Of a DNA stretch of 33,676 nt, positions 12,054 through 23,192 are shown piece by piece. Made by a program: the position numbers and the translations under genes. The notes beneath the pieces are model-generated. The model saw nothing but the letters and a program-made list of their open reading frames with translations. It did not search any database and was not told where the DNA came from. Location: positions 1 to 33,676 of the forward strand of contig JAHJSU010000023.1 in NCBI GenBank assembly GCA_018829985.1. The letters run 5' to 3'. Within the stretch, counting starts at the first letter, position 1. Each line of letters opens with the position of its first letter. This DNA is from Elusimicrobiota bacterium. GTDB taxonomy: Bacteria > Elusimicrobiota > Elusimicrobia > Elusimicrobiales > UBA9959.

Positions 12054-12968
12054 TTAAAGCACCAGGGTCATGGCCCAATCGTAAAGGTAGAGGAGGGGGA
12101 AGAATATGAGAGTGGTGAACACTATGGATTGGGAGACGAGGTCCGCGTCAAAATCGAACTCCTTCGCAAGCACGTAATTCATCACCGCCACCGGCATACA
12201 CGCCTCAAGATACCCCGCCCGCGCCGCGCCGCCCTCAAAATCCAGCAACGACGCCAGCAGCAGATAGAACAAAGGCAGGACAAAAAGCTTCATCGCCGCT
12301 ATGAACGAAAGCTTCCCGGCGTTCCCGCCCACGCTTTTGCCGTAAAGACTGACGCCGATGGTAAACAGCGCGAGCGGCAGCGCCGTCTTCCCTATATCCG
12401 CAAGCGCCGTCCGCAGCAGCCCCGGCAAAGGCGCCGCGAACCATGACATCGCAAGCCCGGCTATGGAAGCCCAAAGCACGAAGTTGCGAAGGACCAGCCG
12501 CTTTAAGCCGGCCTTCACGGGGCAGCTCCCCTCGCATATAACGTTTATCAGCAAAAATCCCAGCGTGAATATCAGGATGTTCTGCACCGACGACGCCACG
12601 GCGGCATAGCCGATAGCCCATTCCCCCAGCCGCATGGAAACCACCGGAAAACCGAGATAAACCGTATTGCCCAGCGCCGCCGTTATCACCAGCAGGCGGG
12701 CGAACCGCCAGTCCAGGACGCGGGTAAGCCAAAGAAAGACTATCAACGCCATCAGCGCGGCTATAGGGAGGGTGTTGACCAGCAGAAAATCCGTCCCGAG
12801 GTCTTTAAGCGGAGTATCTATTATTTTAACGAAAGTAAGGGCCGGAAGGGCGGCGTAATAAAGATACCGGTTGAACGCTTTTTCGGCGCTTTCCGGGACA
12901 AGGCCGTATTTGCGGAAGGCCCAGCCCAGGGTGATCACGAGAAAAATATTTGCGATTATGTCTGCCAT
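12054..12968 (-). CDS. AEC (auxin efflux carrier) family transporter
   Basis: MADIIANIFLVITLGWAFRKYGLVPESAEKAFNRYLYYAALPALTFVKI...LGNTVYLGFPV...ACMPVAVMNYVLAKEFDFDADLVSQSIVFTTL. Confidence 0.88.
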   Translation of the reverse strand: MADIIANIFLVITLGWAFRKYGLVPESAEKAFNRYLYYAALPALTFVKIIDTPLKDLGTDFLLVNTLPIAALMALIVFLWLTRVLDWRFARLLVITAALGNTVYLGFPVVSMRLGEWAIGYAAVASSVQNILIFTLGFLLINVICEGSCPVKAGLKRLVLRNFVLWASIAGLAMSWFAAPLPGLLRTALADIGKTALPLALFTIGVSLYGKSVGGNAGKLSFIAAMKLFVLPLFYLLLASLLDFEGGAARAGYLEACMPVAVMNYVLAKEFDFDADLVSQSIVFTTLIFFPLLYLYDWAMTLVL

Positions 12969-12973
12969 TATTT

Positions 12974-13184
12974 GTAAACTGCCCAGATGGCGAGGCGGCG
13001 AGGCGGCTGGGCAGCTAGACCGCTCAACCGCTGGGCAGCTAGGCGGCTGGGCAGCTTTTTAAGGAGTTCTGTATCTTAGCCTGCTTCGCCGTCTAGCCGT
13101 CTCGCTGCCTAGCTGTCCTGCCGCCAAGCTGTCTAGCCGCCAAGCTGTCTCGCTGTCTAGCCGCCTAGCTACCTGAGTAGTTAC
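12974..13184. repeat. Quasi-tandem word palindrome E1 (GGCGGCTGGGCAGCTAG / CTAGCTGCCTAGCCGCC)
   Basis: Left half contains GGCGAGGCGGCGAGGCGGCTGGGCAGCTAG...; right half GCCGTCTAGCCGTCTCGCTGCCTAGCTG...; ends GTAAACTGCCCAG and CCTGAGTAGTTAC. Confidence 0.8.
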
Positions 13185-13349
13185 CATCATTTAATGAACG
13201 CCAGGACCATGACCTGCGCCGGGAACATGTCCATGCCTTAATTTTAGCAAAATGCAGGCTTGCCCCGCCGTCCTCCCCCGGAAGACTCACTAATCCGGCA
13301 GCTTTTTCCGGCAGCCTTTGTCCGGCTAAAAGTGGTAAAATGATTCAAT

Positions 13350-14381
13350 ATGACAAATGAAAAAACAGGCCCCGGCGCGACGCTGCTGATACTGCTGGCT
13401 GTTTTTTTATCGCTCTTCCTGGCCATGATCCGGCCTTACCTGATATCCATCCTGATGGGCCTGTTGCTTGCCATACTCAGCCGGCCGCTTTACGAACTGC
13501 TCTCCAGCCGCGGCCTGGGGCGCCGGACCGCCGCCGGGGTATCAATGGCCGTTATCTTGCTGGCCATAATCGCGCCTTTGACCGGCTTTGCCGTCACGGC
13601 GGTAAAACAGGCGATAGCGCTTGCCGCCTACCTGGCGGACGAGCGGGGAACTGATTTCATCCGCGCAGCGGTCGCGACGCTCACCGCTTTAAAGCCGGTG
13701 CGCTGGGTCATCGATAGTCCGGCGGACCTGCAGGCCAAGGGCCTGGAGTTCGCCCAGAGCGCGGGCGGCGCGCTCAGCCGCATCATACTGGTGCAGGCGG
13801 CCGCCCTGCCAGATTTGGCCCTTAAGCTGGTGATCTCGCTTCTTACCTGGTTCTTCCTGCTTTTCGAGGGGGAGGAGTTCCTCAAATGGCTTATGTCAAA
13901 GGTCCCGATGGAATCCGGCCTGCGCGTCCGCCTTACAGCCTCTTTCCGGGCCACGGCCGCTTCCACCGTCTGGGCCACCTCCGCTGCCGCGGCCGCCCAG
14001 GCGCTGGTCGTGATGCTGGGCTTCCTGCTGCTGGGCCTGCCGGCCGTTTTTCTCGCCGGGGGCGCGACCTTTATCTTCGCCTGGATACCGATACTGGGCA
14101 GCCTGCCGGTCTGCCTGGCGGGCGGGATTTACCTTTATTTCAACGGTTCGATGATCAAGCTGGCGCTTATGGGCGTTGTCGCGATAGTCGCCGGCCTGAT
14201 GGACAACGTGGTGCGGCCGATAGTCCTGAAAGGCCACGGGGATATGCACCCGCTGCTGGCCCTTATCTCCATCTTCGCGGGCATCCGGATGTTCGGCATA
14301 CTCGGCGTAATTTTCGGCCCCATAGTGGCCGCCATGCTGCTGGCCCTGCTTAACTCCTGGCAGGTTCCGCCCGAGGAATGA
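13350..14381 (+). CDS. AI-2E family transporter (PerM-like)
   Basis: Multi-TM; WIPILGSLPVCLAGGIYLYFNG...GLMDNVVRPIVLKGHGDMHPLLALISIFAGIRMFGILGVIFGPIVAA. Confidence 0.92.
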   Translation: MTNEKTGPGATLLILLAVFLSLFLAMIRPYLISILMGLLLAILSRPLYELLSSRGLGRRTAAGVSMAVILLAIIAPLTGFAVTAVKQAIALAAYLADERGTDFIRAAVATLTALKPVRWVIDSPADLQAKGLEFAQSAGGALSRIILVQAAALPDLALKLVISLLTWFFLLFEGEEFLKWLMSKVPMESGLRVRLTASFRATAASTVWATSAAAAAQALVVMLGFLLLGLPAVFLAGGATFIFAWIPILGSLPVCLAGGIYLYFNGSMIKLALMGVVAIVAGLMDNVVRPIVLKGHGDMHPLLALISIFAGIRMFGILGVIFGPIVAAMLLALLNSWQVPPEE

Positions 14382-14382
14382 A

Positions 14383-14397
14383 CGGGTTACTAACCCG
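14383..14397 (+). terminator. Short hairpin downstream of the AI-2E transporter gene
   Basis: CGGGTT-act-AACCCG just after stop 14381; no clear U-run. Confidence 0.4.
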
Positions 14398-14529
14398 AAA
14401 ATCGCGGTTAAAATCGTCCGTCTTAGGCGAATATCCGCGCAATTTTCGGAAGACTAAAAGATGAGAAAAAAAACAGAAAATCCGGAAAATTTTCCGTCCT
14501 TTAGCCCTTATCCTTTATCCTTAAGCCTT

Positions 14530-14609
14530 CCCGAAAAATTCGTCCGCTATTTCCTGCCTACCGGCAGACAGGCAGCGGGCGTCCGCCTAAGGCGGACGAA
14601 TTTTTCGGG
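14530..14609. repeat. Inverted-repeat element with 18-bp perfect arms
   Basis: CCCGAAAAATTCGTCCGC (14530-14547) and GCGGACGAATTTTTCGGG (14592-14609); nested GTCCGCCTAAGGCGGAC. Confidence 0.88.
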
Positions 14610-14622
14610 TTAACGGAGGACT

Positions 14623-16161
14623 ATGCCTTCCAGAACAGAAGCCCGCAACCCCTGGCTTTTCGTGCCCAGCGCTTATTTCGCCGAGGGCCTGCCTTACATC
14701 CTGATAAACTCGGTTTCCGTCATACTTTACAAGAACATGGGCGTTTCAAACGCCGAAATAGCCTTCTGGACCAGTTGGCTCTATCTGCCGTGGGTTATAA
14801 AAATGCTCTGGGGCCCGATGGTGGATATGTACGGCACGCGCCGCAGTTGGGTGATCTACACCCAGCTTATCATGGCCTGCTGCCTGGCCGCGGCCGCGCT
14901 CTCGCTGAGCGGGGAGCGCTTTTTCGCGATATCGCTGCTTACCTTCGCCGTGGGCGCGTTCATCTCCGCCACGCATGACATCGCCACCGACGGTTTCTAC
15001 ATGCTGGCGCTGACCAGGGAAAACCAGGCCTTTTTCGTGGGGATCCGCTCCATGTTCTACCGCTTCGCTATGATATTCGGCACGGGCTTCTTAGTGTTCC
15101 GGGCCGGCAAAATGCAGGAAGCCGGCGCCGGCGCCGCCGCCAGCTGGGGAACGATGCTGACGATCTCGGCGGCGTTCTTCCTGGCGCTGTTCATATATCA
15201 CAAGTTCATCCTCCCTTATCCCGCAGAAGACGTTCCTAAAGCGAAAGCCGGGCCCGGCGTGATATTGCGTTCAATTGTCACGCTGGGAGGCTACCTTGCC
15301 GCGGCCGGACTGCTTATCTGGCTGTTCACCAGCCTGCACGGCGTATGGCAAAAGCTCGGCGCGGCCGCGCTGCTTGTGACGGCGCTGGTCGTCATATGCC
15401 GCAAATACCTGTTCCCATATTTGAAGTTTAAAATGGCGGAGGAGGGAAGCTCTTTCAACGAGGCGTTTATTTCTTATTTTACCCAGGACGGCATAGGCTA
15501 TATCGTGGCCTTCATCCTTTTATACCGCCTGGCCGAGGCCATGTTTTTAAAGCTCACCCAGCCTTTTTTGCTTGACGCGGTGAACAAGGGCGGGCTGGGC
15601 ATTCCGACTTCGGAGGTGGGCATAATATACGGCACTACAGGCATGATAGCCCTTATCACGGGGGGAGTGCTGGGCGGCTGGCTTATTTCAAAATACGGCT
15701 TCCGCCGCTGCCTGTGGCCGATGGTGTTTGCGCTCAACGCGCCCGACGTGTTCTATCTTTACATGGCATACGCCCAGCCGGAGCTGCAGAAGGTTACCCT
15801 CAGCCTGGGCTGGCTTGCGAATCTGCCGCTTGCGGGCGAATGGCTGGCGCATGCAGCCGGGGCCGGTTTCCAGATACCCGCCGGCACGATACCGCTGCTG
15901 GTAGCGGTGGAACAATTCGGCTACGGTGCGGGCATGACGGCCTTCATGGTGTACCTGATGATGATCTGCAGGGGGAAATACAAGACCGCGCATTTTGCCA
16001 TCTCAACCGGCATCATGGCGCTCGGCATGATGGTGCCGGGCATGATAAGCGGAAAGCTCCAGGAAGCGCTGGGCTACAGGCACTTTTTCCTGGCCGTGTG
16101 CTTCCTGACCATCCCGGGGATATTAGTCATTTTTAAGCTGCCGATAAAGGACGAGGAATAA
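14623..16161 (+). CDS. MFS transporter, AmpG-like
   Basis: SD acggagga; NPWLFVPSAYFAEGLPYILINSVSVILYKNMGVSNAEIAFWTSWLYLPWVIKMLWGPMVD...ATHDIATDGFYMLAL. Confidence 0.88.
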   Translation: MPSRTEARNPWLFVPSAYFAEGLPYILINSVSVILYKNMGVSNAEIAFWTSWLYLPWVIKMLWGPMVDMYGTRRSWVIYTQLIMACCLAAAALSLSGERFFAISLLTFAVGAFISATHDIATDGFYMLALTRENQAFFVGIRSMFYRFAMIFGTGFLVFRAGKMQEAGAGAAASWGTMLTISAAFFLALFIYHKFILPYPAEDVPKAKAGPGVILRSIVTLGGYLAAAGLLIWLFTSLHGVWQKLGAAALLVTALVVICRKYLFPYLKFKMAEEGSSFNEAFISYFTQDGIGYIVAFILLYRLAEAMFLKLTQPFLLDAVNKGGLGIPTSEVGIIYGTTGMIALITGGVLGGWLISKYGFRRCLWPMVFALNAPDVFYLYMAYAQPELQKVTLSLGWLANLPLAGEWLAHAAGAGFQIPAGTIPLLVAVEQFGYGAGMTAFMVYLMMICRGKYKTAHFAISTGIMALGMMVPGMISGKLQEALGYRHFFLAVCFLTIPGILVIFKLPIKDEE

Positions 16162-16166
16162 ACCGG

Positions 16167-16253
16167 AAGTTGATAGAGTTGATACCGTATGGGATAAAAC
16201 CGATCAACTTTATCAACTGTCGTTTCCTACTCTATCAACTGAAGTTTTCGGTT
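16167..16253. terminator. Inverted repeat spanning the convergent MFS/CDF gene ends
   Basis: ggaagttgatagagttgata versus atcaactttatcaac...ctctatcaactgaag...ttcggtt lie between and overlap the 3' ends of convergent genes. Confidence 0.45.
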
Positions 16254-17181
16254 CGGCGCAGTTGGGCAGGCACTCTTCGGGACACTTCTTCTCGCAGGGC
16301 TCTATATGGATGGTGACCTTTGCGTCGGCAAATGCCCGCCCTATATCCGCTATGATGTAATCGGTCAGAGCGTGGGCGTCTACCACCGACATTCCTGAAT
16401 CCACCAGTATCTCGGACTCTATGAACCGGGTCGCTCCGGCTTTTCTTGTCTTTAAATTTTTAAAGCTTATCACGCCTTTCTGCGCGCTTATAAGCCCCTC
16501 TATCTTCGTGTTGTCCTCTTTCGGCAGCGAACCGTCAAGCAGGTCGCCCATGGACTGCGCCGTAAGGTTATACGCCGCTTTTATTATCAAAAGAGCCACC
16601 AGGATGGCTATGACCGGGTCTATCCAGTGGACATGGTGTCCCACCCAGACGAGCTCTATAAGCCAGATAAGGAACAGCCCGGCCATGACGCCCAGGGAAG
16701 TATAAACGTCGGTCCTCAAATGCCAGGCGTCGGCCTTTATGGCTATGGAATCGGTGGCGTTGCCCACTTTAAAAAGCATCTGCGAAACCACCATATTGAC
16801 AAAAGCGGAAAGCCCCATGACCAGGATGCCCCAGCCTATCAGTTCTATAGCCTGGGGGTGGATGAGCTTTTTAACCGCTTCGTAAATTATCCAGGCGGCC
16901 GCCAGGAAGATCAGGACCGCCTCTATGAACCCGGAGATGTTCTCGAACTTGCCGTGGCCGTAATGGTGGTCTTTGTCGGCCGGCTTGGCGGAGGAACGCA
17001 CCGCGACATACGCGATAAGCGCCGCGACAAGGTCTATGCCGGAATGTATGGCCTCCGAGAGCACCGACACGGAACCGATGACAAGCCCCGCTATCAGCTT
17101 GAATATCACCAGGACCGTGTTGGAAACCACGGAAAGCTTCACCACGTGCAGTTTAGCGGTATTGGCGTTTTTGACATTCAT
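16213..17181 (-). CDS. Cation diffusion facilitator (CDF) family transporter
   Basis: KLIAGLVIGSVSVLSEAIHSGIDLVAALIAYVAVRSSAKPADKDHHYGHGKFENISGFIEA; C-terminal cytoplasmic domain; Cys-rich tail CEKKCPEECLPNC. Confidence 0.93.
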   Translation of the reverse strand: MNVKNANTAKLHVVKLSVVSNTVLVIFKLIAGLVIGSVSVLSEAIHSGIDLVAALIAYVAVRSSAKPADKDHHYGHGKFENISGFIEAVLIFLAAAWIIYEAVKKLIHPQAIELIGWGILVMGLSAFVNMVVSQMLFKVGNATDSIAIKADAWHLRTDVYTSLGVMAGLFLIWLIELVWVGHHVHWIDPVIAILVALLIIKAAYNLTAQSMGDLLDGSLPKEDNTKIEGLISAQKGVISFKNLKTRKAGATRFIESEILVDSGMSVVDAHALTDYIIADIGRAFADAKVTIHIEPCEKKCPEECLPNCAEPKTSVDRVGNDS

Positions 17182-17189
17182 ACGTTAGC

Positions 17190-17233
17190 CCGAAAAATTC
17201 GTCCCCCCAAGCTTGGGGGGACGAATTTTTCGG
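17190..17233. repeat. Perfect 44-bp palindrome
   Basis: CCGAAAAATTCGTCCCCCCAAG|CTTGGGGGGACGAATTTTTCGG, zero-loop; shares CCGAAAAATTCGTCC with the 14530-14609 element. Confidence 0.95.
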
Positions 17234-17303
17234 ATCAGACGGCCAAACTCCCTCTTGCCCCAGGTAAAAATTTTTGCGGCAAAAATTTTTAAAAGTCAGT
17301 CTG

Positions 17304-17489
17304 CTATTCTAACTTAATGCAGGTCACCGGACAATTGGTGGCCGCCGTTGTGCAGGCCTCTTCTTTGCCGGCGGGAACGGAATCGCCTATCACCACGGCT
17401 TTTTCGTCTTTCTGTTCGAACACTTCAGGGCAGTCGCTGGCGCAAAGCCCGCAGCCTATGCACGCTTCGGCATCGATAACAGCTTTCAT
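17304..17489 (-). CDS. Ferredoxin
   Basis: Start 17489 preceded by SD (cggaggt); MKAVIDAEACIGCGLCASDCPEVFEQKDEKAVVIGDSVPAGKEEACTTAATNCPVTCIKLE. Confidence 0.92.
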   Translation of the reverse strand: MKAVIDAEACIGCGLCASDCPEVFEQKDEKAVVIGDSVPAGKEEACTTAATNCPVTCIKLE

Positions 17490-17548
17490 TTTTACCTCCG
17501 GTTCAGGAACCGCTAAATTTTTCACCTGTCTAAATTATACCTAAAATT

Positions 17549-17887
17549 GTAACTGCTCAGCTTCCGTATACGGTTGATCTTGATTTTAACCGCAAAGAAC
17601 GCAAAGCAAACGCAAAGGACACAGAGTGAATCTGTTTGGAGAGATTACAGCGATAAATTGAAGAGATTACACTATAAGAGAGTTTACGTTAACGGCTTGC
17701 CCGCCAAACGGCGGGTCCGCCTCAGGCGGATAACCTTTGCGTTCTTAGCGTAAACCCTTTGCGTTCTTGGCGGTTTCCTCCGAAGCAGTAAAGGTGAGAC
17801 TTAAAATTAAAGAGGTCAGAAATCAGAAGTAAGAGGCAGGAGGTAAGGAAGCATACTTCTATCACTGACCTCTGCCTGTTTAGTTAT
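17549..17887. repeat. Composite word-palindrome E4 (CGCAAAGAACGCAAAG arms with nested GATTACA words and CCGCC hairpins)
   Basis: AACCGCAAAGAACGCAAAGCAAACGCAAAGG (from 17588) versus AACCTTTGCGTTCTTAGCG...CCCTTTGCGTTCTTGGCGGTT (17732-17775); left end GTAACTGCTCAG; weaker right end CCTGTTTAGTTAT. Confidence 0.75.
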
Positions 17888-18980
17888 TGATCCGTTGCTG
17901 CGTTTTTTTGTCAAAGACATGCATATTCCGGTAATTGAACCTGACGGACACCTTGCTGCCCGGGCTTTGGTTGAAGAAGGCCTCCACGGTGGCCAGGACC
18001 CGGTTTTCGCCCGCTTTGATATAGAGGTTTTCCCTGTGGCCCAGCAATTCGCTGACTTCCAGGACGCCCTCTATCTTTTCGGAGCAGTTCTCCCTGGTCC
18101 CGGAACCGACCAGCACATCGTCGGGCCTGATTCCCAGCACCACCTCCCGCCCGGCGTTCCTGGCGCCGTCCGCCAGAAGGAACGGGGGAATGTACAGGGT
18201 AAGGGAGTCATTTTTTAAAAACAGCTTTTCGCCTTCCGCGGACAGCTTGCCGTGCAGAAAATTCATGGTTGGGCTGCCGATAAAGCCCGCGACGAAAAGA
18301 TTATCGGGCTTGCGGTAAACTTCTATGGGCGTCCCTGTCTGCTGGATGATCCCGTGGTTCATCACCACTATCCTGCCGGCGAGCGTCATGGCCTCCACCT
18401 GGTCATGGGTGACATAGATGATAGTGGCGTTCAGGCGCTGATAGAGCTTGGCTATCTCGACGCGCATCTCTTCCCTGAGCTTGGCGTCCAGATTCGAAAG
18501 CGGCTCGTCGAAAAGAAAAACCTTCGGCTTTCTGACTATCGCGCGGCCTATGGCTACGCGCTGGCGCTGACCGCCGGAAAGCTGCTTGGGCATCCGTTTG
18601 AGGAGTTTCGTCAGCTGCAGTATGGCCGCCGCCTCATGCACCCTGGCGGAGATCTCGCGCTTGTCCATCTTCATCAGGCGCAGCGCGAAGCTCATGTTCT
18701 CTTCCACGGTCATATGGGGGTAAAGGGCGTAATCCTGGAAAACCATGGCTATCTGGCGTTTGCTGGGGTGTATGTTGTTGACGAGGATATTATCTATGTG
18801 GATATCGCCGGCCGTTATTTCTTCAAGGCCGGCAAGCATCCGCAGCAGAGTCGTCTTGCCGCAGCCCGAAGGTCCGACTATCACCACGAATTCATGGTCT
18901 TTTATTTCCACGCTCACGCCGTTCAGAATCACGTTTTCGTTGAATTTTTTTGTGACCTTTAAAAATTTGACGTCAGCCAT
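17880..18980 (-). CDS. Sugar ABC transporter ATP-binding protein (MalK/UgpC/MsmK type)
   Basis: GPSGCGKTTLLRMLAGLEEI, LSGGQRQRVAIGRAI, VFLFDEPLSNLDAKLR, C-terminal OB-like domain; SD aaaggag. Confidence 0.96.
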   Translation of the reverse strand: MADVKFLKVTKKFNENVILNGVSVEIKDHEFVVIVGPSGCGKTTLLRMLAGLEEITAGDIHIDNILVNNIHPSKRQIAMVFQDYALYPHMTVEENMSFALRLMKMDKREISARVHEAAAILQLTKLLKRMPKQLSGGQRQRVAIGRAIVRKPKVFLFDEPLSNLDAKLREEMRVEIAKLYQRLNATIIYVTHDQVEAMTLAGRIVVMNHGIIQQTGTPIEVYRKPDNLFVAGFIGSPTMNFLHGKLSAEGEKLFLKNDSLTLYIPPFLLADGARNAGREVVLGIRPDDVLVGSGTRENCSEKIEGVLEVSELLGHRENLYIKAGENRVLATVEAFFNQSPGSKVSVRFNYRNMHVFDKKTQQRINN

Positions 18981-19000
18981 AAAAGAACTCCTTTGTTATG

Positions 19001-19104
19001 CTGGGCGGCTTGACTGCCAGGCGGCTAGACGGCTTGGCAGCCATAAGGTCTGCAAACCTTAAAAAGCCGTCTAGCTGTCCAGCTGCCCAGCCGCCAAGCA
19101 GCCG
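19001..19104. repeat. Word palindrome E2, same word family as E1
   Basis: ctgggcggcttgactgccaggcggctagacggcttggcagcc ... gccgtctagctgtccagctgcccagccgccaagcagccg between ABC genes. Confidence 0.8.
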
Positions 19105-19112
19105 TTTTTGCA

Positions 19113-19967
19113 TTATCCTTTAACGCTGCCCAGCGTCAGCCCCGACAGCAGCCATTTGGACGAATATAAAAACACCATCAGCACCGGCACGGTCACCAGC
19201 ATGGAGCCGGCGGCGAACATGCCCCATTGCGTTATATACTGGCCCTGCAGCTCAAAAAGTCCCAGGGTCCAGGTGTACTGCTTGGCGCTGAAAAGCACCA
19301 CCCGGGCCACCAGATATTCGTTCCAGGCGGTGGTAAAATTGAACAGGAAAGCTATGCTCAGGGCCGGGGTGGAAAGCGGCAGGATGATGCGGTAGAACGC
19401 CCCTATCTGGCTGGTTCCGTCCACCAGCGCGGCCTCCTCGAGCGAGCGGGGGATGGTATCGTAATAGCCTTTGAGTATCCAGATGCTGAACGGCAAAGAA
19501 GACACCGAATACGCGATTATCATGCCGAGGTAGGTATTCATCAGGCCCAGCTTCATTATCATCAGGAAAAGGGGCAGTATCAGCATGCCGGCCGGTATCA
19601 TCTGCGTGGAGAGCAGGAGTATCATCCCGGACTTTTTGCCCGGGAACTTGAACCGCGAGAACGCGTAGGCGGCGGTGGAGGCCAGGCTTACCCCGATAAA
19701 GGACGTGACGACGGTTATTATAAGCGAATTCCAGAGCCAGCGCAGGAACATCGTGTCTTTTAACAGCCTCAGATACGCGGCGAAATCGGCCCCTGACGGG
19801 ATAAGCGACAGGTCGGTGGAGATCACCCTGTCACCCGGCCTGATAGAGATAGACAAGATGCGCAAAAGCGGATAAACGCAGACCACCACGACGGTGATAA
19901 TGACCGCGTGGATCAGCAGGTATTTCAAAAGTTTCTTTCTTCTGTAAACCGCGGCTTCTTTGTTCAT
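19113..19967 (-). CDS. Carbohydrate ABC transporter permease (MalG type)
   Basis: SLASTAAYAFSRFKFPGKKSGMILLLSTQMIPAGMLILPLFLM and EEAALVDGTSQIGAFYRIILPLSTPALS (EAA loop). Confidence 0.94.
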   Translation of the reverse strand: MNKEAAVYRRKKLLKYLLIHAVIITVVVVCVYPLLRILSISIRPGDRVISTDLSLIPSGADFAAYLRLLKDTMFLRWLWNSLIITVVTSFIGVSLASTAAYAFSRFKFPGKKSGMILLLSTQMIPAGMLILPLFLMIMKLGLMNTYLGMIIAYSVSSLPFSIWILKGYYDTIPRSLEEAALVDGTSQIGAFYRIILPLSTPALSIAFLFNFTTAWNEYLVARVVLFSAKQYTWTLGLFELQGQYITQWGMFAAGSMLVTVPVLMVFLYSSKWLLSGLTLGSVKG

Positions 19968-19987
19968 AATTTATAAGTTTTTGCCAT

Positions 19988-20020
19988 ACACTAACCACTA
20001 GCCACTATTCACTATCCACT
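19988..20020. repeat. Quasi-tandem word ACACTAACCACTAGCCACTATTCACTATCCACT
   Basis: About 7-8-bp imperfect units filling the malF/malG-type gap. Confidence 0.7.
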
Positions 20021-20024
20021 GCTG

Positions 20025-21221
20025 TTACCGTTCGTCCTTCGCCGCGTCGAAAGTCTTCAGATAGAACACCGAAATGAAGAATAAAATGGCGAATATCACT
20101 ATGGCGAAAGCCGCTGAATAACTGTACCGGTTATAGGTAAAAGCCGCTTTATACAAGGCCGAAACCAGAATATCCGCCCGCTCGGTGCCCCCGGACTGCC
20201 CGGTCACCAGGTAAATAACGTTGATGTTGTTGAATGTCCAGACCGTGCCCAGCGTCACCGCGGGCATCAGCACCGGCCTGATAAGCGGTACGGTTATATA
20301 GCGCAATTTCTGAAAATAAGAGGCGCCGTCTATATCGGCGGCATCGTAATAGGAGGAGGATATTGATTGCAGGCCGCCGAGTATTACCACCATCATGAAC
20401 GGTATGCCAAGCCAGATGTTTATCAGCGTGCAGGTAGCAAGCGGATGATCGCTCAGCCACTGAACGGGACCAAACCCCATCGCGGCCAGAGCGGGGAAAG
20501 CTACGGCGAGTTTACCCAGCATGATATTAACGAACCCGTACTGTGAGTGAAATTCTCCGCGCATGGCCAGCACGGCCACGACCTGCGGCATTGCCCATGG
20601 TATCACCAAAAGCGTCCGGTAAATACCCTTGAACCTTATATTATTGTTCAACAGCAGGGCCAGGGCGAAACCGCCGGTCACATGGAAGAACACGTTTATA
20701 AAGGTCCACCAGACCGTGCGCAAAAGAAGAGCCCAGAAAGACACTTCCGACAGGGGGGAGGTGGTGAAGACGTTTATATACTGCTGGATGCCGACGAAGG
20801 GCAGATGGCCGGTATTCTTCCAGGCCATAATGGTGGTCAGTTTCAGGTCGTGGAAGGAAAGATAGATCTGAAAAACGAATGGATAAACCAAAAGCAGCGC
20901 CAGGCCCACGAAGGCGGGGGCAAGCAGCATGTAAGGGAGGGAGAACCGGCCCTTTATAATATGTTTGAAAAACAGATTTATGATAACCTGCGTTATAAAG
21001 AACCAGGCCCAGAGCTCGCCGCTGCCGGCGCCCTGGACAAGGCCGACATAGCGGCACAGAAGAACCGCGGCAAGCGGGAAAAAAACCGCCGAAACGGCCA
21101 TAAACCATTTTCTGTCGTGTAATTTGAAGTGATAATAGAAATAGCCTTCTATGGCCGCTATGCCGGCGGCCACTATCAGGACGAACCACAGCACTTCGTA
21201 TATAGAATAAAGGATATCCAT
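20025..21221 (-). CDS. Carbohydrate ABC transporter permease (MalF type)
   Basis: YMLLAPAFVGLALLLVYPFVFQIYLSFHDLKLTT; YYDAADIDGASYFQKLRYITVPLIRPVLMPAV (EAA loop). Confidence 0.94.
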   Translation of the reverse strand: MDILYSIYEVLWFVLIVAAGIAAIEGYFYYHFKLHDRKWFMAVSAVFFPLAAVLLCRYVGLVQGAGSGELWAWFFITQVIINLFFKHIIKGRFSLPYMLLAPAFVGLALLLVYPFVFQIYLSFHDLKLTTIMAWKNTGHLPFVGIQQYINVFTTSPLSEVSFWALLLRTVWWTFINVFFHVTGGFALALLLNNNIRFKGIYRTLLVIPWAMPQVVAVLAMRGEFHSQYGFVNIMLGKLAVAFPALAAMGFGPVQWLSDHPLATCTLINIWLGIPFMMVVILGGLQSISSSYYDAADIDGASYFQKLRYITVPLIRPVLMPAVTLGTVWTFNNINVIYLVTGQSGGTERADILVSALYKAAFTYNRYSYSAAFAIVIFAILFFISVFYLKTFDAAKDER

Positions 21222-21235
21222 ATAAAAAAAGCAGA

Positions 21236-21442
21236 TAGTTGCTCCTGAAAAAGTCGCAACTAATGATTACAGTGATAACAGAAACGATTACAGTAATGAG
21301 AAAGAGATGACGGTGATAGTAAGGAATATCAGATTACCGAATTATTGCCGTATCACTGTAATCGTGTTGGTTTATCACTGTAATCTCTTTATTTAAAATC
21401 ACCGTAATCATAGTTAGTCCTTAAGTTTTTCAGGACTAACTA
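21236..21442. repeat. Inverted-repeat element E3 (GATTACAGTGATA words, TAGTTRSTCCTGAAAAA ends)
   Basis: TAGTTGCTCCTGAAAAA (21236-21252) versus TTTTTCAGGACTAACTA (21426-21442), 15/17 complementary; interior ATGATTACAGTGATAAC... and ...TATCACTGTAATC...CACCGTAATCAT. Confidence 0.78.
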
Positions 21443-21446
21443 GCTA

Positions 21447-21533
21447 GTAGTGTGTAGGTAGTAGATAGGGGAATGCGGAGTTGAGGTTCTTAAATATCTG
21501 TTCCCCACCTACTACCTACTATCTACAACCTAC
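21447..21533. repeat. Word palindrome (GTAGGTAGTAGATAGGGG / CCCCACCTACTACCTACTATCTAC)
   Basis: gtagtgtgtaggtagtagataggggaat versus ttccccacctactacctactatctacaacctac; abuts SBP stop. Confidence 0.8.
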
Positions 21534-21534
21534 T

Positions 21535-22794
21535 TCAGCGATTCATCTCCGCGATCCTGGAGTCGGCGTTCTCCTGCATTTTGCGCGTGGCGTCCTCAAC
21601 GCTCAGTTTCCTTGACATGGCCAGGCCCAGGTAATTGCGGGCCGAATCCCAAACCGCGCGCATTTCGGTGGCCATGGACATGGGCCTGCCTTTGGAGATC
21701 TCATCCATGGACACCCTGGACACCTCCGTAGCCGTTATTTCCGGCGCTTTGGAGGCCTCGGTCAGAGCCGGCAGGCGCTGAAGCTCCTTGAACTGTCTTA
21801 TCTGGTTTTCCCGGTTGGTGTAAAATTCCATAAGCCGCTTTATCAGCTCAAGTTTCCCGGGTTTCACGCCGGAGCTGACCATGAAATACTTTCCGCTTAC
21901 CATGGGCGAGGGATAGAGGCCGGTCTTTGAGAGTTTTGGAATGAGGGCCAGACCGAAATTTGTTTTAAAATGCTGCTGATAGCCGGACAGCGCCCAATCT
22001 CCGTTTATTATAAAAGCGGTCTTGCCTTCCTTAAAAAGCGAGTCCATGCAGTTATAATCGCATTCCGGCGGCACGTATTTTTTGGCGTATTTAAGGTCCA
22101 GGTAGAAATTTATGGCCGAACGCATGGCCGGGGTATCCAGCGTGGGGGTCTTATTGTCAATGGGCCAGCCGCCGAAAGCGCCGAGCCAGGGCGCGAGCCA
22201 GAAGGGTTCGCCCAGGTCGAAGGCCATGCAGAAATCAAGTTTATACTTAGGCGCCTCCCTGGCGCAGAAATTAAAAAGTTCGTCGGTATCTTTCGGCGGG
22301 GATTTGACGAATTTTTTATTATAAAAAAACATCAGGTGGTTGCCGTTCGAGACCGGCACGCCCCAGACATGGCCGTCCAGGCTTATGGCCTGGACCACGG
22401 CCTTGTTGTACCTGGACATGTCCATTAACCCGTCCACGTGGCTGATGAAACCGGAAACGGCGTAAAGCCCGGCTGTGTCCGAAGGCCCCATCAGCAGGTC
22501 CGGCGGAACGCCGGCCAGCGACGCAGCCTGGAACTGAGAGCGCAGATCTTCGGTCTGGTAATGGGTCCGGGTTATTTCCAGGCCCGCGTTTTCCGGAAGT
22601 TTTTTGAAGGCGTCGAGAACGGAATCTATATAGGGGGCTACCTGGGCGTCTTCCTGCTCCCACAGGACTATGGAAGCGGCATCGGAAAGCGGCTTCGGCC
22701 GCGAGCAGGCGGACAGAAGCAAGAGGAGAGCGAATAGCGAATAGCGAATAGCGAATAGCGGTGGAAACTTTGGCCAAACCCTTGATTTTCCCAT
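21535..22794 (-). CDS. Sugar ABC transporter extracellular solute-binding lipoprotein
   Basis: LLLLLSAC lipobox; family 1 SBP features: ASLAGVPPDLLMGPSDTAGLYAVSGFI, YKLDFCMAFDLGEPFWLAPWLGAFGG, FKEGKTAFIINGDWAL. Confidence 0.92.
   Translation of the reverse strand: MGKSRVWPKFPPLFAIRYSLFALLLLLSACSRPKPLSDAASIVLWEQEDAQVAPYIDSVLDAFKKLPENAGLEITRTHYQTEDLRSQFQAASLAGVPPDLLMGPSDTAGLYAVSGFISHVDGLMDMSRYNKAVVQAISLDGHVWGVPVSNGNHLMFFYNKKFVKSPPKDTDELFNFCAREAPKYKLDFCMAFDLGEPFWLAPWLGAFGGWPIDNKTPTLDTPAMRSAINFYLDLKYAKKYVPPECDYNCMDSLFKEGKTAFIINGDWALSGYQQHFKTNFGLALIPKLSKTGLYPSPMVSGKYFMVSSGVKPGKLELIKRLMEFYTNRENQIRQFKELQRLPALTEASKAPEITATEVSRVSMDEISKGRPMSMATEMRAVWDSARNYLGLAMSRKLSVEDATRKMQENADSRIAEMNR
22730..22760. 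repeat. 7-bp tandem repeat (GCGAATA x4.4) within the SBP signal-peptide region
   Basis: gcgaata gcgaata gcgaata gcgaata gcg. Confidence 0.95.
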
Positions 22795-22817
22795 ACTCTT
22801 GGTTTTTGCCGTAATTC

Positions 22818-22955
22818 GTAACTGTTCAGGTTATCAGGTTCAAGGTTCAGGGTTTAAGGTTCAGGGTTCAGGGTTATTTTTTCATAATCTTTTTATGTTC
22901 CCTGATTTTCAACCGTTGAACCGCTGAACTGTGAACCTGGAACCTGGGCAGTTAC
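22818..22955. repeat. Word palindrome E5 (GGTTCAAGGTTCAGGG / CCTGAACC-type)
   Basis: GTAACTGTTCAGGTTATCAGGTTCAAGGTTCAGGGTTTAAGGTTCAGGGTTCAGGG ... CCCTGATTTTCAACCGTTGAACCGCTGAACTGTGAACCTGGAACCTGGGCAGTTAC; ends exactly before the stop codon at 22956. Confidence 0.85.
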
Positions 22956-23192
22956 CTAATCTTTTGAAATGTTCGTTATCGCCGCGAGCAGCGCAACAAG
23001 GACGGAAAGCTTCAGCGCCGTCCACCAGGAGATCTTAGCGGCCACGTGTCCCGCGGCTACCGCTCCGGGCAATAATTCCGGGATAGTCCACATCCAGAAC
23101 CATTTTATAAGGAAAACACCCAGAACGAATATGCCCATTACCCAAACCACGATCGCGGGGATACCCAGCAGCAGCATCTTGCGCAATTTCAT
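22956..23192 (-). CDS. Small membrane protein (2 predicted TM), uncharacterised
   Basis: MKLRKMLLLGIPAIVVWVMGIFVLGVFLIKWFWMWTIPELLPGAVAAGHVAAKISWWTALKLSVLVALLAAITNISKD; start could be 23234. Confidence 0.55.
   Translation of the reverse strand: MKLRKMLLLGIPAIVVWVMGIFVLGVFLIKWFWMWTIPELLPGAVAAGHVAAKISWWTALKLSVLVALLAAITNISKD

What the first reader, a model, noticed from the sequence alone, without database searches (positions are those of the whole stretch)
12974..22955. Unrelated word palindromes share a GTAACTGYYCAGG-like terminus
Outward-reading ends: E1 left GTAAACTGCCCAG; E1 right (rc) GTAACTACTCAGG; E4 left GTAACTGCTCAG; E5 left GTAACTGTTCAGG; E5 right (rc) GTAACTGCCCAGG; E4 right (rc, weak) ATAACTAAACAGG. 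The interiors are completely different (GGCGGCTAG, CGCAAAG and GGTTCAGG words). A common end with different quasi-repetitive contents is what one mobilising or generating machinery would leave.
Basis: partly seen in the sequence, partly recalled or inferred. Interest (0 to 1): 0.78.

Follow-up and report, generated by a model that had tools for sequence, protein, structure and literature searches.

The report
IS66 tips on unrelated palindromes
Hundreds of short palindromic DNA pieces in this bacterium share the same 12-base ends because a transposase of the IS66 type has moved them around, although what lies between the ends differs; the palindromes themselves seem to be leftovers of a second, little-studied kind of element that carries one small gene.

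Summary
The window's genome holds 369 exact copies of GTAACTRYYCAGS against 0 for the reversed control. In 1.00 Mb of that genome, 85 inward pairs occur. Of these, 42 are flanked by an exact 8-bp direct repeat and 6 more match at 7/8; unrelated flanks reach 8/8 in 0.4% and at least 7/8 in 1.2%. No other repeat length is enriched. The paired elements fall into about 12 unrelated interior families. In the sister species the same tips bound an IS66-family transposon (L113: DruA gene plus TnpC), and independent IS66 copies in the phylum also show GTAA ends with 8-bp duplications. So these are non-autonomous IS66-type elements. In the window E1 (tips, 7/8 duplication) and E5 (both tips) are members. 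E4 has one tip; E2 and E3 have none.

The interiors are a separate layer. Across bacteria, 74% of 103 GxxExxY genes lie between inverted tandem-word arms, against 1.3% of other genes. Four-helix-bundle (23S-IVS protein) genes do too, 68% of 28. Gene-less word palindromes are probably their deletion derivatives. How palindromes gained the tips is inferred only.

The parts
12974..13184 (.). E1: IS66-type non-autonomous element with CTAGC/GGCGGCTAG word arms
   Evidence: tips at both ends; 7/8 target duplication; absent from the syntenic site of the sister species; same-word element L060:4561-4697 with tips and 7/8 duplication
12966..12973 (.). E1 left target duplication CATTATTT (holds the start codon of ORF 12054-12968 on the - strand)
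   Evidence: sequence; ORF table
13185..13192 (.). E1 right target duplication CATCATTT (7/8)
   Evidence: sequence
12974..12986 (+). E1 left tip GTAAACTGCCCAG (one inserted A)
   Evidence: sequence
13172..13184 (-). E1 right tip GTAACTACTCAGG
22818..22955 (.). E5: IS66-type non-autonomous element with GGTTCAGG word arms
   Evidence: both tips exact; homologues L067:4734-4858 and L089:9214-9339 carry exact 8-bp duplications; E5 itself shows no duplication (3/8)
22818..22830 (+). E5 left tip GTAACTGTTCAGG
22943..22955 (-). E5 right tip GTAACTGCCCAGG
17549..17781 (.). E4: one-ended relative, CGCAAAG words, left tip only
   Evidence: left tip 1 mismatch; homologues in L039, L070, L097, of which L097:937-1128 is complete with duplication CAAAATTC
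18999..19100 (.). E2: tip-less word palindrome (CTAGC words)
   Evidence: a different word palindrome sits at this place in the sister species
21233..21445 (.). E3a: tip-less palindrome, GATTACAGTGATAA words, the same word as around a GxxExxY gene in a relative (L121)
21438..21535 (.). E3b: tip-less palindrome, GTAGGTAGTAGATAG words of the kind found around four-helix-bundle genes

Best explanation
The common terminus is the terminal inverted repeat of an IS66-family transposon. Short palindromic DNAs that carry a 12-13-bp copy of it at each end (GTAACTACTCAG and close variants) have been inserted as non-autonomous (MITE-like) elements by an IS66 TnpC acting in trans, each insertion duplicating 8 bp of mostly AT-rich target. 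Shown: enrichment, inward pairing, 8-bp duplications, near-identical copies at many sites, nesting, and the same ends on an IS66 element in the sister species. Inferred: that IS66 TnpC is the enzyme in this species (none is in its assembly), and how palindromes of unrelated sequence acquired the tips. The interiors are word palindromes, a separate element class that in its full form carries a GxxExxY nuclease-like gene or a four-helix-bundle gene between inverted tandem-word arms (association shown, derivation inferred).
For: Copy number 369 exact vs 0 control. 85 inward pairs, 42 exact and 6 at 7/8 with 8-bp duplications; no other length enriched. About 20 copies of one 113-bp element with a different duplication at each site. 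Nested insertions with their own duplication, e.g. L037:5529-5628 TAAAAATC. Within the family, PF03050 occurs only in sister species G001, where L113:32-2467 has left GTAACTACTCAGAT and right GTAACTGCCCAGGT, DruA (E 1.7e-34) and TnpC NF033517 (E 3e-83). The same tips with 8/8 duplications in G001 (L293, L294, L295) and G019 (L304). Other IS66 copies in the phylum have GTAA ends with 8-bp duplications: L311, L314, L319, L312 at 8/8, L317 at 7/8. Literature: IS66 has 8-bp repeats and TIRs starting GTAAGCG (PMC11946415).
Against: No IS66 transposase or DNA relic of the G001 element was found in the window's own genome (96% complete but 362 contigs, many ending at these repeats). L113 itself lacks a matching duplication, so its two ends may come from a recombined pair. 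Shared tips are 12-13 bp, shorter than the 20-30 bp usual for IS66. No long tip-bounded element with a duplication was found in the held 1.0 Mb of this genome (372 long pairs tested). 37 of 85 inward pairs have no duplication at 7/8 or better, E5 among them.
Confidence: 0.9

Rival explanations
1. Another transposase family, present in this genome but not recognised here, moves the elements; the IS66 in the sister species merely carries similar ends.
For: No IS66 in the own assembly although copies look recent (113-bp copies nearly identical).
Against: GTAA ends and 8-bp duplications are the IS66 signature, shown on independent IS66 copies of the same phylum; three IS66 copies or remnants in the sister species carry exactly these tips.
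Confidence: 0.07
2. The GxxExxY nuclease-like protein itself mobilises the elements and the tips are its recognition sites.
For: Both GxxExxY genes of the genome sit inside tip-bounded elements with duplications; L072:3351-3479 is an internal-deletion derivative of one.
Against: GxxExxY loci examined in relatives lack these tips, and tips bound many interiors of unrelated type.
Confidence: 0.04
3. Chance or convergent word drift: the tip is only an accidental part of the words (CAGG, TCAG).
For: CAGG is part of some words, for example GGTTCAGG.
Against: 369 exact copies against 0 reversed; 8-bp duplications placed exactly outside the tip; tips on words that contain no CAGG.
Confidence: 0.005

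Closest known systems
IS66-family insertion sequences and their non-autonomous derivatives (MITEs)
   Same: GTAA ends, 8-bp target duplications, and the same ends on a DruA+TnpC IS66 element in the sister species
   Different: Only 12-13 bp of end are shared; interiors are not deletion products of the IS but unrelated palindromes; about 12 interior families; hundreds of tips without a transposase in the assembly
23S rRNA intervening sequences (IVS) with S23p/four-helix-bundle ORF, e.g. Coxiella burnetii (PMC4990558)
   Same: Small four-helix-bundle gene within an inverted stem, tandem heptamers (GACAGAT) before the gene; compare with the word-arm interiors
   Different: Word-arm elements here lie between protein genes, not in rRNA; many are gene-less; some carry GxxExxY instead
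REP/BIME palindromes with RAYT transposases
   Same: Many short intercistronic palindromes scattered over a genome
   Different: 8-bp duplications and fixed GTAAC ends point to a DDE transposase; Y1 transposases were not searched for

Membership tests
IS66 family (as mobilising system) | Ends begin 5'-GTAA | tested here: met
   GTAACTACTCAG and variants
IS66 family (as mobilising system) | 8-bp target duplication | tested here: met
   42 of 85 pairs exact, cross-element rate 0.4%
IS66 family (as mobilising system) | TnpC (PF03050/NF033517) between the same ends | tested here: met
   in sister species G001 only, L113
IS66 family (as mobilising system) | TnpC encoded in the same genome | tested here: not met
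   none in the G000 assembly; the assembly is fragmented at repeats
IS66 family (as mobilising system) | Terminal repeats of 20-30 bp | tested here: not met
   only 12-13 bp are shared between interior families
MITE of a known IS | Short, no transposase gene, inverted ends, target duplications, many copies | tested here: met
MITE of a known IS | Interior derived from the parent IS | tested here: not met
   interiors are word palindromes; no DNA match of the L113 element in G000
23S rRNA IVS / S23p elements (for the interiors) | Inverted stem around a four-helix-bundle gene | tested here: met
   68% of 28 PF05635 loci, 2% of shifted windows; the window palindromes themselves are gene-less
23S rRNA IVS / S23p elements (for the interiors) | Located in 23S rRNA | tested here: not met
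   the window palindromes lie between protein genes; no rRNA family in the window
23S rRNA IVS / S23p elements (for the interiors) | Excised from the transcript by RNase III | not testable with these tools
   needs RNA work
REP/BIME | Companion Y1 (RAYT) transposase | not tested
   no search for PF01797 was made

The most novel reading that the evidence does not exclude
Word palindromes are the gene-less remains of one widespread class of small selfish elements, of which 23S rRNA intervening sequences are the only part described so far: one small gene (GxxExxY or four-helix bundle) between inverted arms of a tandem 7-10-bp word whose letters differ from element to element but agree between the two arms. 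In this lineage IS66 has adopted them as cargo.
Probability: 0.5. Interest if true: 0.85.

Novelty: new variant of a known kind. Interest (0 to 1): 0.66.

Why it matters
It explains how unrelated palindromes can share one end: an IS66 transposase seems to need only about 12 bp at each end and carries whatever lies between. It also separates the moving machinery from the palindromes. The GxxExxY result gives a genomic context to a protein family that had none in the papers searched here (two papers use the name; the one read, mentions it only in passing), and it links that family to rRNA intervening sequences, whose origin is still described as unclear (PMC4990558).

Tried and rejected
Arm-to-arm copying as the way tips became symmetrical: the variable bases of the two tips of an element agree only slightly more often than shuffled (77% against a mean of 72%, shuffle maximum 83%), so no support. 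Tip-to-tip mini-elements as landing sites: only one pair below 80 bp, without duplication. Long autonomous element in the own genome: none found in 1.0 Mb. Clean empty sites in the sister species: E1 is absent there but adjoining sequence differs too; the E2, E3 and E5 places hold other word palindromes, so no base-exact empty site was obtained. Rfam: no family in the window. No solved structure matches the GxxExxY profile by sequence. A scan with the distant GxxExxY alignment was not possible for lack of conserved blocks; a consensus protein was used instead.

Full report
Observation. Both ends of E5, the right end of E1 and the left end of E4 are real. The E1 left end has one inserted base. 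The weak E4 right end is at chance level and lies outside the E4 palindrome as judged from its homologues. In the window alone the motif count is only moderately above shuffles (44 against 28.9 +/- 5.8 at up to 3 mismatches).

Genome scale. The window is contig 203 of a 3.53-Mb, 362-contig genome. GTAACTRYYCAGS with at most one mismatch occurs 660 times against 19 for the reversed pattern; exact 369 against 0. Many copies lie about 126-139 bp from a contig end, so the assembly seems to break at them. I fetched 1.00 Mb of the genome. Inward pairs peak at 100-120 bp; outward pairs are rare. Of 85 inward pairs, 42 have an exact 8-bp direct repeat immediately outside and 6 more match at 7/8; flanks of different elements agree at 8/8 in 0.36% and at 7/8 or better in 1.2%. 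Tested over pairs shorter than 500 bp, no exact repeat of 5, 6, 7, 10 or 11 bp was seen and only one of 9 bp. The duplicated sites are 73% A+T in a genome of 44.5%. This is transposition.

Interiors. The 48 elements with duplications fall into 12 interior clusters: a 113-bp element with some 20 near-identical copies, CACAAAG/CACGAAG words (10), GGTTCAGG words, TAGACTG words, CTAGC words, CACGGAG words, CGCAAAG words, CGCAGATGA words and others. Most are clearly palindromic. Elements nest in each other with their own duplications.

Source of the ends. IS66 transposase (PF03050) is absent from the own genome and, within the family, found only in the one held sister species G001. There, L113 has GTAACTACTCAGATAC at the left, GTAACTGCCCAGGTCC at the right, a DruA gene (122-1009) and TnpC (1270-2451). 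L115 ends in the same right tip; L116 is an internally deleted relative with both tips. L113 and L116 lack a matching duplication, so these copies may be recombined. Other IS66 copies in the phylum have GTAA ends and 8-bp duplications (L311, L314, L319 with 14/14 end match and 8/8; L312 with 10/14 and 8/8; L317 with 13/14 and 7/8), as in the literature (PMC11946415; PMC3281130). Tip-bounded short elements with 8/8 duplications occur in G001 and in G019 of another genus, the latter with GGTTCAGG-type words as in E5.

Window elements. E1 (12974-13184) has tips and a 7/8 duplication CATTATTT/CATCATTT that includes the start codon of ORF 12054-12968; it is absent from the sister species. E5 (22818-22955) has exact tips but no duplication; homologues of it have duplications. 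E4 has only a left tip. E2, E3a and E3b have none.

Second layer. Both GxxExxY genes of the genome lie in tip-bounded elements (L040:902-1376, L088:1311-1854), and L072:3351-3479 looks like the first with most of its gene deleted. In relatives GxxExxY genes lack the tips but lie between inverted word arms, each with its own word; in L121 the word is GATTACAGTGATAA, as in E3a of the window. I tested this on 103 loci from many phyla: aligning 220 bp upstream with the reverse complement of 220 bp downstream, 74% score 28 or more, against 0.4% of 798 shifted windows, 7% of pairs taken across loci and 1.3% of 392 other open reading frames in the same loci. The loci were chosen by protein similarity only. 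The same test on 28 four-helix-bundle loci (PF05635) of this phylum gave 68% against 2% of shifted windows and 1.4% across loci, with different words; only 24 gene-boundary controls were available there, two of them at 29-30. In the own genome, where such repeats are common, 5% of 687 gene boundaries reach the score. Two PF05635 genes of the own genome show the arms plainly: AAGGGTCTAAGGG and GGTAATCGGTAATCAG words. The Coxiella 23S rRNA intervening sequence has the same plan: a four-helix-bundle ORF, tandem GACAGAT heptamers and a terminal stem (PMC4990558). I take the gene-less word palindromes as deletion derivatives of such elements; that is an inference.

Turnover. Between this genome and G001 (genes mostly 86-90% identical, one at 78%) every word palindrome compared differs: E1 is missing, and at the E2, E3 and E5 places and near 19,971 G001 has other words. 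Within the CTAGC family the loop is conserved between copies while the arms are reshuffled.

How it works. Shown: ends, duplications, copy spread, ends shared with IS66. Inferred: IS66 TnpC in trans, and capture of tips by palindromes. How unrelated palindromes got symmetrical tips is not explained; arm-to-arm copying found no support. How tip-less word palindromes spread is unknown; no duplications or end motif were established for them.

Noticed in passing
L127-L228 (103 loci with L119-L126): GxxExxY (TIGR04256/PF13366) genes lie between inverted tandem-word arms in 74% of loci from many phyla, against 1.3% of control genes.
   Followed up: yes
L261-L290; L291; L292: Four-helix-bundle (PF05635, 23S IVP) genes lie between inverted word arms of other word types (68% of 28 loci, one phylum).
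   Followed up: partly
window 18985-19115, 19971-20050, 21233-21535, 22726-22957 against L241: At the same intercistronic places the sister species carries a different word palindrome although the neighbouring genes are well conserved.
   Followed up: partly
window 18999-19100 with L059, L061, L042; window 12974-13184 with L094, L110: In the CTAGC-word family the loop (e.g. CATAAGGTCTGCAAACCTTAAAAAGC) is conserved between copies while the word arms are reshuffled.
   Followed up: no
window 21233-21445; L060, L082, L032: E3a copies share outer blocks (TAGTTGCTCCTGAAAAAGTCGCAACTA and AGTTAGTCCTTAAGTTTTTCAGGACTAACTA) around interiors of different length, perhaps a further mobile family.
   Followed up: no
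L113:122-1009: A DruA (PF14236) gene takes the accessory place in this IS66 element.
   Followed up: no
window 17263-17296 and 14490-14542: The palindrome TAAAAATTTTTGCGGCAAAAATTTTTA and the block before CCCGAAAAATTCGTCC each match many places in the sister genome.
   Followed up: no
window 22728-22760: Direct repeat GCGAATAGCGAATAGCGAATAGC with no second arm, next to E5; possibly a lone arm of a word palindrome.
   Followed up: no
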